From assembly GCA_026398895.1 (NCBI GenBank), contig JAPLRZ010000048.1, positions 1-64,000 of the forward strand: 64,000 bases of DNA, given 5' to 3'. Shown piece by piece: positions 35,751-39,509 of this stretch. Both the position numbers and the translations under genes were made by a program. The DNA is from Methylococcales bacterium. Its GTDB lineage: Bacteria > Pseudomonadota > Gammaproteobacteria > Methylococcales > Methylomonadaceae. The notes under the pieces were generated by a model. The model was not told the origin of the DNA. It saw only the letters and a list, made by a program, of their open reading frames with translations, and searched no databases. Each line of letters opens with the position of its first letter. Positions within the stretch are counted from its first letter, which is position 1.

Positions 35751-37199
35751 ATGCTTAAGCCAGTAAACACCATTGATTTAAAACCTTTTTTAAGATTAAT
35801 GTTAGAAAAAAAGGCAGATTATTTGTCCTTGAAGGTAGGTTCGCCAATCATGCTTTGTTTAGCTGGCGAAAATAAACCCTTGGGTAAAACAGAGTTAACT
35901 GATGCAATGACGGATCAAATTGCATTCAGTATGCTCACTGAAAAGCAAAAAAACACGCTGATTAATTCGAGCAAAGTAACCATTGACTACATTACGCCTG
36001 ATGACGAGTATTTTAACGTTCATATTGAAGTAGAAGACAATGGCTTATCGTTGCTAATCAAAGCTTATAATACTGATGAAATACAGAGCATCAAAGAAAA
36101 TAAACCTATTGAAGTATTAGGTAAAGCACCGATAGGTAACTTAGACCTCCTACCGTATTTGAAAAAAATAATTGAACTGGGTGCGTCTGATCTATTTTTA
36201 ACAGTTGATTCGCCTGTTAAAGCGAAGGTTTTTGGAAAAGCAGTTAAATTGGACGATTTTTTACTCACGCCTGAGCTAACAAAATCAGCCACGCTAAGCA
36301 TTATGACGCAAGAGCAAATTGACGAATTTCAATCCACTAAAGACCTAGATTTTGCTATCGCTATGCCCGATGGTAGTGCGCGTTTTCGAGCCAATGCCTT
36401 TTATCAACGCAAAACCGTCGGTTTGGTTATGCGGTTAATTCCATCGATTATTCCTACTGCTGAAAGCATGGGACTACCCGAAATTTTGCTAGAACTCATC
36501 ATGGCAAAACGTGGCTTATTGCTAATGGTAGGCGCGACAGGTTCTGGTAAATCAACCACATTAGCCGCAATGATTAATCATCGTAATGCCAATGCGGCAG
36601 GGCATATTTTAACCATCGAAGACCCCGTAGAATTCTCGCATCCTAACCTCATGTCCATCATGAACCAACGTGAAGTCGGCATTGATACCGCCTCTTATGC
36701 GCGGGCATTGAAAGCCAGTTTGCGTGAAGCCCCTGATGTTATTTTAATCGGTGAGATTCGTGACAGAGAAACAATGGAAGCTGCGCTAGAGCTAGCCAAC
36801 ACAGGGCATTTATGTATTTCAACCTTACACGCCAACAATGCCAACCAAGCAATGGATCGTATCATCAATATGTTTCCACACGTTCAACACAGACAATTAT
36901 TCATGGATATTGCAACGAACTTAAACGGCGTTGTTTCTCAGCGTTTAATTCCTGACTTGCAAGGAAAACGCTGTGCAGCCATTGAAGTAATGATTAATAC
37001 GCCTCATGTATCCAGTTTAATTTTAAAAGGCGAGTTAAATGAAATTAAAGAAGCGATGAAAACCAGTGGCAGCAAAGGCATGAAAACATTTGATGATGCT
37101 TTACATGATCTCTATAAAGCAGGAAAAATTAGCATGGAAGAAGCATTAAAAAATGCAGATTCACGAAATGACTTAGAAGCCAAAATGACCTTTGGTTAA
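35751..37199 (+). CDS. PilT/PilU-type ATPase with a duplicated N-terminal domain
   Basis: Residues 126-482 are a complete PilT/PilU ATPase: N domain ASDLFLTVDSPVKAKVFG, Walker A GATGSGKSTT, Asp box TIEDPVEFSH, Walker B VILIGEIRD and His box STLHANNA. Residues 1-120 are a second, diverged copy of the N domain (LRLMLEKKADYLSLKVGSPIM versus the LLPYLKKIIELGASDLFL version), so the protein is about 100 residues longer than usual. It probably arose by duplication next to pilU. It may be a modified pilus retraction motor or accessory ATPase. Confidence 0.88.
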   Translation: MLKPVNTIDLKPFLRLMLEKKADYLSLKVGSPIMLCLAGENKPLGKTELTDAMTDQIAFSMLTEKQKNTLINSSKVTIDYITPDDEYFNVHIEVEDNGLSLLIKAYNTDEIQSIKENKPIEVLGKAPIGNLDLLPYLKKIIELGASDLFLTVDSPVKAKVFGKAVKLDDFLLTPELTKSATLSIMTQEQIDEFQSTKDLDFAIAMPDGSARFRANAFYQRKTVGLVMRLIPSIIPTAESMGLPEILLELIMAKRGLLLMVGATGSGKSTTLAAMINHRNANAAGHILTIEDPVEFSHPNLMSIMNQREVGIDTASYARALKASLREAPDVILIGEIRDRETMEAALELANTGHLCISTLHANNANQAMDRIINMFPHVQHRQLFMDIATNLNGVVSQRLIPDLQGKRCAAIEVMINTPHVSSLILKGELNEIKEAMKTSGSKGMKTFDDALHDLYKAGKISMEEALKNADSRNDLEAKMTFG

Positions 37200-37261: not shown

Positions 37262-37289
37262 ATTTAACATAATATACATTATGCGAAGT
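37262..37289 (-). other. dif: Chromosome dimer resolution site dif
   Basis: Read on the minus strand, the 28 bases divide into a XerC arm ACTTCGCATAA, a central TGTATA and a XerD arm TTATGTTAAAT. The E. coli dif site has GGTGCGCATAA, TGTATA and TTATGTTAAAT, so only the first four bases of the XerC arm differ (three of the four). The site is in non-coding sequence between the pilU-like gene and a minus-strand gene. XerC and XerD, with FtsK, would recombine here to resolve chromosome dimers. It marks the replication terminus. Confidence 0.93.
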
Positions 37290-37414: not shown

Positions 37415-38473
37415 CTAACGTAAAGGTTTTCCTATTCGAGTAACACGGTCAAAACTATAAACGTGTTCTGTTGGTGATTCTGAACAACGACCAATTAAAC
37501 GATGATGGAATTCTCTACCGCCATTTTCTACATCAATTCTGACATTACGCTGTAGTGTATTTTTACATATTGGACAAGTCGCCCAATAACTAACCAATTG
37601 TATTCTTCTAATGGGATTACCTGTGCTTTCTCTAATTTCATCCGTGGCAACGCATTCAAGTTGAGTAAATGTAAATCTAGGATTAGCTGTTAATGGTGGA
37701 TTGATAGAAATAACCCTTTTTCTTAGGCAATCCCACTTTCTTTTAAAAAATAATGCAGTGAAAAAATACATACCTATTATCGGAAAATCTGAAATAGAAA
37801 ATTTACCATAAAAAACCATATTTATGATATAAATTCCAAAAATAGCCGTTATTACCCATACTAAAATAAAAGCCATTATTTCAATACTAAATCGAAAGCC
37901 AGAAAATTCGTAGTTATAAATCCAGTTAGTTATTCTTGGTAATTTAATATGTTCTACAAAATAATTAACATAGTTTTTTGGTAAATCATCCTTATTAACA
38001 TCTCCTAATAAATTATTTTTATCAATATTTTCTTGTGTTTCTACATTTTCATAATCAATATAATATAAATTACGATTACCAGAGCCACCATCTGTTCCAG
38101 ATTTTTTTACTGTCGGAATTACTAATAAGTTATTTTTACCTGCTATTTCTATGAAGCTATCGGTATGATCTGAAATACGGTCAATTAAAGTTTTCATATA
38201 GCCTTTAACGACTTTCATTATTTTCTCTTTATCCTCTTTGTCCCATTCTTTTTGTATTTTCCCTGCAATCCTCATAGCATCATATCGACATTCTTCAACT
38301 GATTTTCCTGTATTTAAATCAGCAAGTGTCAATTCTGCCAACGCTTTAAAAGCTTGATAAGCATAAATCTTGTTATCTACATAACTATAAAATATGTTAT
38401 CTGCACTTGAATACCCCTCTAAAAAATTTAAAGCACACTTCGCTGCGTTTTCTATAAGCTCTTGTTTTTCCAT
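37415..38473 (-). CDS. Membrane protein with zinc-ribbon-like C terminus, unknown
   Basis: This 352-residue protein has a helical, charged N-terminal half (about 1-190). Two membrane helices lie near residues 200-245 (IEIMAFILVWVITAIFGIYII and the FPIIGMYFFTALFF segment). The C-terminal domain has CPIC...GRC and other potential metal ligands. No family is recognised. It is divergent from the CoiA-like gene, with a 133-base shared upstream region. It is AT-rich, suggesting transfer, and the terminus is a common site of such genes. A defence or stress role is possible but not shown. Confidence 0.6.
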   Translation of the reverse strand: MEKQELIENAAKCALNFLEGYSSADNIFYSYVDNKIYAYQAFKALAELTLADLNTGKSVEECRYDAMRIAGKIQKEWDKEDKEKIMKVVKGYMKTLIDRISDHTDSFIEIAGKNNLLVIPTVKKSGTDGGSGNRNLYYIDYENVETQENIDKNNLLGDVNKDDLPKNYVNYFVEHIKLPRITNWIYNYEFSGFRFSIEIMAFILVWVITAIFGIYIINMVFYGKFSISDFPIIGMYFFTALFFKRKWDCLRKRVISINPPLTANPRFTFTQLECVATDEIRESTGNPIRRIQLVSYWATCPICKNTLQRNVRIDVENGGREFHHRLIGRCSESPTEHVYSFDRVTRIGKPLR

Positions 38474-38606
38474 AAAATAAATACCATTAATACGGTTTGA
38501 AACTGTTCTTATAACCGTTTTGCAAACGGTTTCCCCCTGTAATTAACTGGGAATTATCGGCATAATTACCCCCACTGGCAATTAAATTTTTTCTTACGGA
38601 ATAATA

Positions 38607-39509
38607 ATGAATGATAAAACAAAATTAGAGCTTCAAAATGAAGTGGAACTTAAATATGCACTATTTAAAAATTCAATAGTGCATATTAGTGAAGTAAGTA
38701 GCGGCTTAAACTTAAATAATTATCGCTGTCCAAAATGTAATAGTTTTTTGATTGCTAAAAAAGGCGATATAAGAATTCATCATTTTGCCCATTACAATTA
38801 TGAAAACTGCCAAGGCGCACAAGAAACGGCATTACATAAACTGGCAAAAGAAATATTACTGCAAGAAAAAATGGTTGCTATTCCCGATATTAATAATCCA
38901 GAACAGCGTGTTTTTATTGAATTTGATGAGATTAAGCAAGAGGTCAGAGTTTTTAACCTAATCGTAGATGTATTAGGTTATTGGAATAATAACGAATTGG
39001 CTATTGAAATTAAAGTTACGCATGAAGTTGATTTGAGGAAAATAGCCGTTGTTAGAGAGAAAGAAATTGACATGATCGAAATAGATTTATCCAGTTATGT
39101 TAATGCAAATTTATCTAGGGATGAATTGACTACTGTGGTTATAGAAACCGCACCTAGAGTTTGGATAAACACACCCATAATTCAAGTTATCGAAGAGGAA
39201 AATAAAATGAGTAATAATGTTAAAGCAATGGGATTTATATCAGCTTATGGCTATTCAAGAAAAAATAATAGTAATTTTGAAATGAGTAATATTTATGTCA
39301 TGCAGCCAATTGAAAAAAAGGCGAGTCAAAACTTTACTGTGACCGCTTGTGCTGGCTATGATTTAATAAAGTTTGAGATAGATGATAATCGTGATTTGCA
39401 TGACAAATTGGAAAGATTTGATTTTCCTTGTGATGTTGCCTTAACTTTTGACATAAGATTAAAGGGTAACAAAACAATACCCATTGTTACCGACGTTAAT
39501 CTGATTTAA
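38607..39509 (+). CDS. CoiA-like zinc-finger nuclease-fold protein
   Basis: The 300-residue protein opens with a CoiA-type zinc module: CPKC at 41-44, HHFAH at 58-62 and C68, then ETALHKLAKEIL. This is followed by a PD-(D/E)xK-like core, D121 in NLIVDVLGYW and E134-x-K136 in LAIEIKV. The C-terminal 100 residues are a beta-rich domain of unknown type. CoiA proteins act in DNA uptake in Gram-positives, but related genes in other genomes are probably DNA-processing nucleases. The function here is open. The gene is AT-rich. Confidence 0.65.
   Translation: MNDKTKLELQNEVELKYALFKNSIVHISEVSSGLNLNNYRCPKCNSFLIAKKGDIRIHHFAHYNYENCQGAQETALHKLAKEILLQEKMVAIPDINNPEQRVFIEFDEIKQEVRVFNLIVDVLGYWNNNELAIEIKVTHEVDLRKIAVVREKEIDMIEIDLSSYVNANLSRDELTTVVIETAPRVWINTPIIQVIEEENKMSNNVKAMGFISAYGYSRKNNSNFEMSNIYVMQPIEKKASQNFTVTACAGYDLIKFEIDDNRDLHDKLERFDFPCDVALTFDIRLKGNKTIPIVTDVNLI

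What the first reader, a model, noticed from the sequence alone, without database searches (positions are those of the whole stretch)
37262..37289. Chromosomal dif site: window spans the replication terminus
The minus strand reads ACTTCGCATAA, TGTATA and TTATGTTAAAT. This is identical to E. coli dif in the XerD arm and centre, and differs only in the first bases of the XerC arm. Genes on both sides mostly point toward it (plus strand from 25.7 to 37.2 kb, minus strand from 37.4 to 45 kb except one). The density of accessory genes to its right fits a terminus region. A site this close to the gammaproteobacterial consensus is not expected by chance.
Basis: partly seen in the sequence, partly recalled or inferred. 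Interest (0 to 1): 0.85.

Follow-up and report, generated by a model that had tools for sequence, protein, structure and literature searches.

The report
Ordinary chromosomal dif (Xer recombination) site
This is the normal site at which a methane-oxidising-type bacterium separates accidentally joined sister chromosomes before dividing; nearly all of its relatives have the same site, so it is real but ordinary.

Summary
Window 37262-37289 (minus strand) reads ACTTCGCATAATGTATATTATGTTAAAT: 25 of 28 bases equal E. coli dif, and all three differences lie in the four outer XerC-arm bases. It is the only site with 3 or fewer mismatches in the 3.6 Mb assembly; about 4e-5 are expected by chance. The genome encodes XerC, XerD and FtsK with a gamma domain. 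Fifty-three of 61 genomes of the same order or closer carry the site, some with the identical 28-mer. In four near-closed relatives of the same family dif lies 44-48% of the circle from dnaA (shorter way). There the KOPS strand switches at dif, and GC skew changes sign at or within 20-40 kb of it. So this is the chromosomal dif, and the window lies in the terminus.

In this contig KOPS are 7:0 toward dif on the left but 4:3 on the right, and GC skew gives no clean switch once gene strand is removed. Genes converge on dif only between 25.7 and 45 kb; outside that they mostly point away.

The pilU side of dif is conserved in the genus and the other side is variable, which is expected of termini. 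Interest is low.

The parts
37262..37289 (-). dif site, 28 bp: XerC arm ACTTCGCATAA (37279-37289), centre TGTATA (37273-37278), XerD arm TTATGTTAAAT (37262-37272)
   Evidence: Direct reading and whole-genome pattern search; conserved in 53 of 61 genomes
35751..37199 (+). PilT/PilU-family type IVa pilus ATPase, the gene next to the XerD arm; same position in G002, G003, G004 and G005 of the genus
   Evidence: TIGR01420; tblastn synteny
37415..38473 (-). 352-aa protein with no family match, the gene next to the XerC arm; absent from the seven congeners searched

Best explanation
It is the chromosomal dif site. When homologous recombination fuses sister chromosomes into a dimer, the septal translocase FtsK, steered by oriented KOPS, brings the two dif copies together. 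FtsK-gamma activates XerD, which exchanges strands at the TTATGTTAAAT side of TGTATA, and XerC finishes the exchange, giving two monomers. Shown here: the site, its uniqueness, its conservation, the presence of XerC, XerD and FtsK-gamma genes, and its place at the terminus in relatives. Inferred from known biology: the reaction itself.
For: Exact match to RNTKCGCATAATGTATATTATGTTAAAT, unique in the genome. 53 of 61 genomes of the order or closer have the site, with 0 control hits. XerD passes TIGR02225 (385 vs 330 bits) and XerC passes TIGR02224 (356 vs 335). FtsK has 4TM, alpha, motor and gamma domains. Near-closed relatives of the family (main contigs 4.4-5.0 Mb) have dnaA about opposite dif: shorter distance 0.44 of the contig in G034, 0.48 in G033, 0.46 in G017 and 0.48 in G030 (positions). 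KOPS switch strand at dif in all four, and GC skew changes sign at or within 20-40 kb of it. On the window's own contig, KOPS left of dif are 7 plus and 0 minus, two of them inside minus-strand genes. The site is intergenic, as 96% of proteobacterial dif sites are, and Methylococcus capsulatus has a dif with the same centre and XerD arm (PMC2731167).
Against: On the window's contig KOPS to the right are 3 plus and 4 minus, and GC skew corrected for gene strand does not switch. The assembly is a draft of 75 contigs, so the distance to dnaA (on contig C20) cannot be measured.
Confidence: 0.96

Rival explanations
1. The site is an attachment site (attL or attR) of an element that integrates at dif by the host Xer proteins, and the DNA to its right (37.3 kb onward) is that element.
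For: The XerC side differs between species of the genus while the pilU side is conserved. The ORF at 38607-39509 has a marginal hit to CTX phage RstB (27 vs cut-off 26.2 bits). Contigs of G004, G009, G014 and G018 end within a few bases of dif.
Against: No second dif-like site bounds such an element (8 or more mismatches elsewhere on the contig). Of the right-hand genes searched, none is a phage structural or replication gene; they are aryl-polyene biosynthesis and other cellular genes. The RstB-like ORF also matches CoiA and, with its neighbour, forms a pair found elsewhere.
Confidence: 0.03
2. Chance resemblance to dif.
For: None.
Against: 4e-5 expected per genome, and conservation across the order.
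Confidence: 0.005

Closest known systems
E. coli chromosomal dif / XerCD-FtsK
   Same: Identical centre, XerD arm and inner 7 bases of the XerC arm; same recombinases and FtsK-gamma encoded
   Different: Three of the outer four XerC-arm bases, which are the known variable positions (PMC2731167)
Methylococcus capsulatus Bath dif (TATGCGCATAATGTATATTATGTTAAAT, PMC2731167)
   Same: Same centre, same XerD arm, same order as judged from named relatives
   Different: First four bases TATG in place of ACTT

Membership tests
Chromosomal dif of the XerCD type | 28-bp site with 11-bp arms and 6-bp centre matching the proteobacterial consensus | tested here: met
Chromosomal dif of the XerCD type | Single copy per chromosome | tested here: met
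   (assembly about 92% complete)
Chromosomal dif of the XerCD type | XerC, XerD and FtsK with a gamma domain in the same genome | tested here: met
Chromosomal dif of the XerCD type | KOPS polarity switches at the site | tested here: inconclusive
   Own contig: 7:0 left, 3:4 right. Four relatives: clear switch.
Chromosomal dif of the XerCD type | Cumulative GC skew extreme near the site | tested here: inconclusive
   Raw cumulative maximum of the contig is at 35-40 kb, but GC3 and intergenic skew show no switch. Clear in G033, G034 and G017 and weaker in G030.
Chromosomal dif of the XerCD type | XerCD-dependent dimer resolution | not testable with these tools
   Needs an experiment.
Attachment site of an Xer-integrating element | Second dif-like site bounding mobile-element genes | tested here: not met

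The most novel reading that the evidence does not exclude
The variable side of dif in this genus results from repeated Xer-mediated insertion always on the XerC side, leaving one functional dif next to pilU while the distal sites decayed.
Probability: 0.05. Interest if true: 0.4.

Novelty: new member of a known kind. Interest (0 to 1): 0.1.

Why it matters
It fixes the replication terminus in a draft genome and helps to orient contigs. It gives no new biology by itself.

Tried and rejected
I looked for a second dif and for degenerate dif-like boundaries on the contig and found none. I suspected an Xer-integrated phage in congener G002, which has about 7 kb more than G003 beside dif, but the open frames there read as CheB/CheR-PAS-like and GGDEF/EAL-like signalling proteins (my reading; no family search run), so this was rejected. 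The apparent double dif in G009 and G014 is one dif repeated in overlapping contig ends of 127 and 40 bases. The marginal RstB match at 38607-39509 does not make the region phage-like.

Full report
Observation. The 28 bases at 37262-37289, read on the minus strand, are ACTTCGCATAATGTATATTATGTTAAAT. They differ from E. coli dif at three positions, all in the outer four bases of the XerC arm. With the base composition of this genome, 4e-5 sites this good are expected in 3.6 Mb on both strands. A search of the whole assembly (75 contigs, 92% complete) finds this one site and no other with up to 3 mismatches.

Conservation. In 61 genomes of the same genus, family and order, 53 have a site with at most 3 mismatches, nearly always one, and the reversed control pattern has none. 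The exact 28-mer occurs in at least 118 stretches of genome contigs (the scan stopped at its limit), mostly Gammaproteobacteria, including Methylobacter, Crenothrix and Methylovulum. The window's own relatives include record JABFSH010000014.1, a Methylococcaceae MAG: G008 contig 76 has the same length and the same dif sequence. The organism is therefore most likely a Methylococcales methanotroph; this is an inference from relatives. Methylococcus capsulatus has TATGCGCATAATGTATATTATGTTAAAT (PMC2731167).

Machinery. The genome encodes XerD (TIGR02225), XerC (TIGR02224) and one FtsK with 4TM, alpha, motor and gamma domains.

Position. The window lies on a 144.5 kb contig and dnaA is on another (C20), so the distance cannot be measured here. 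In four relatives of the same family whose main contig is near closed, the shorter dif-dnaA distance is 0.44-0.48 of the contig (positions). In G033, sampled at 35 places, KOPS (GGGNAGGG) turn from plus to minus between the 20 kb pieces that meet at dif, and GC skew turns from positive to negative within the next 20-40 kb. G034, G017 and G030 show the same KOPS switch across dif, 60 kb each side; GC skew turns at dif in G034 and G017 and about 20 kb beyond it in G030. On the window's own contig KOPS are 7 plus and 0 minus left of dif (one-sided p 0.008), including two inside minus-strand genes, but 3 plus and 4 minus to its right. GC skew here is weak and follows gene strand; third-position and intergenic skew do not switch. 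Thus the terminus location rests mainly on conservation and on the relatives, and the window's own composition agrees on one side only.

Gene orientation.

Surroundings. The gene next to the XerD arm is a PilT/PilU-family ATPase, followed by a pilT-like gene, an aspartate-kinase-like gene, rmuC, alaS and recA. In G002, G003, G004 and G005 the same pilus gene adjoins dif; in G007 it does not. The XerC side differs between species: an aryl-polyene cluster here, nif genes by my reading of the ORFs in G003, signalling genes in G002, and other genes in G005. No element boundary was found in the window. Variable gene content around the terminus is common; I do not read it as a mobile element at dif.

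Verdict. Interest is low.

Noticed in passing
L176 (G004:C115) 262-289: A 7.7 kb contig of a congener with phage-like primase/helicase, DNA polymerase and tape-measure genes carries GATTCGCATAATTAAAATTATGTTAAAT: intact dif arms with a different centre. It could be the attachment site of a tailed phage that uses host Xer. In the same genome the chromosomal dif lies at a contig end (C42:2-29).
   Followed up: partly
L041, L175, L178-L181: In G004, G009, G014 and G018 assembly contigs end within a few bases of dif, as would happen if part of the population carried something integrated there; assembly artefact not excluded.
   Followed up: partly
window 37415-39509: Divergent pair of genes, a 352-aa protein without family and a CoiA-N/RstB-like 300-aa protein. 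The pair recurs in the same arrangement in G010:C41 and G048:C7, so it is a two-gene module of unknown function.
   Followed up: partly
window 39609-62500: Aryl-polyene-type biosynthesis genes (ketoacyl synthases, ApeP-like and ApeI-like dehydratases, aromatic amino acid lyase, MMPL exporter, halogenase-like flavoprotein), interrupted by a PIN-domain gene and a pentapeptide-repeat gene (46.1-48.2 kb).
   Followed up: no
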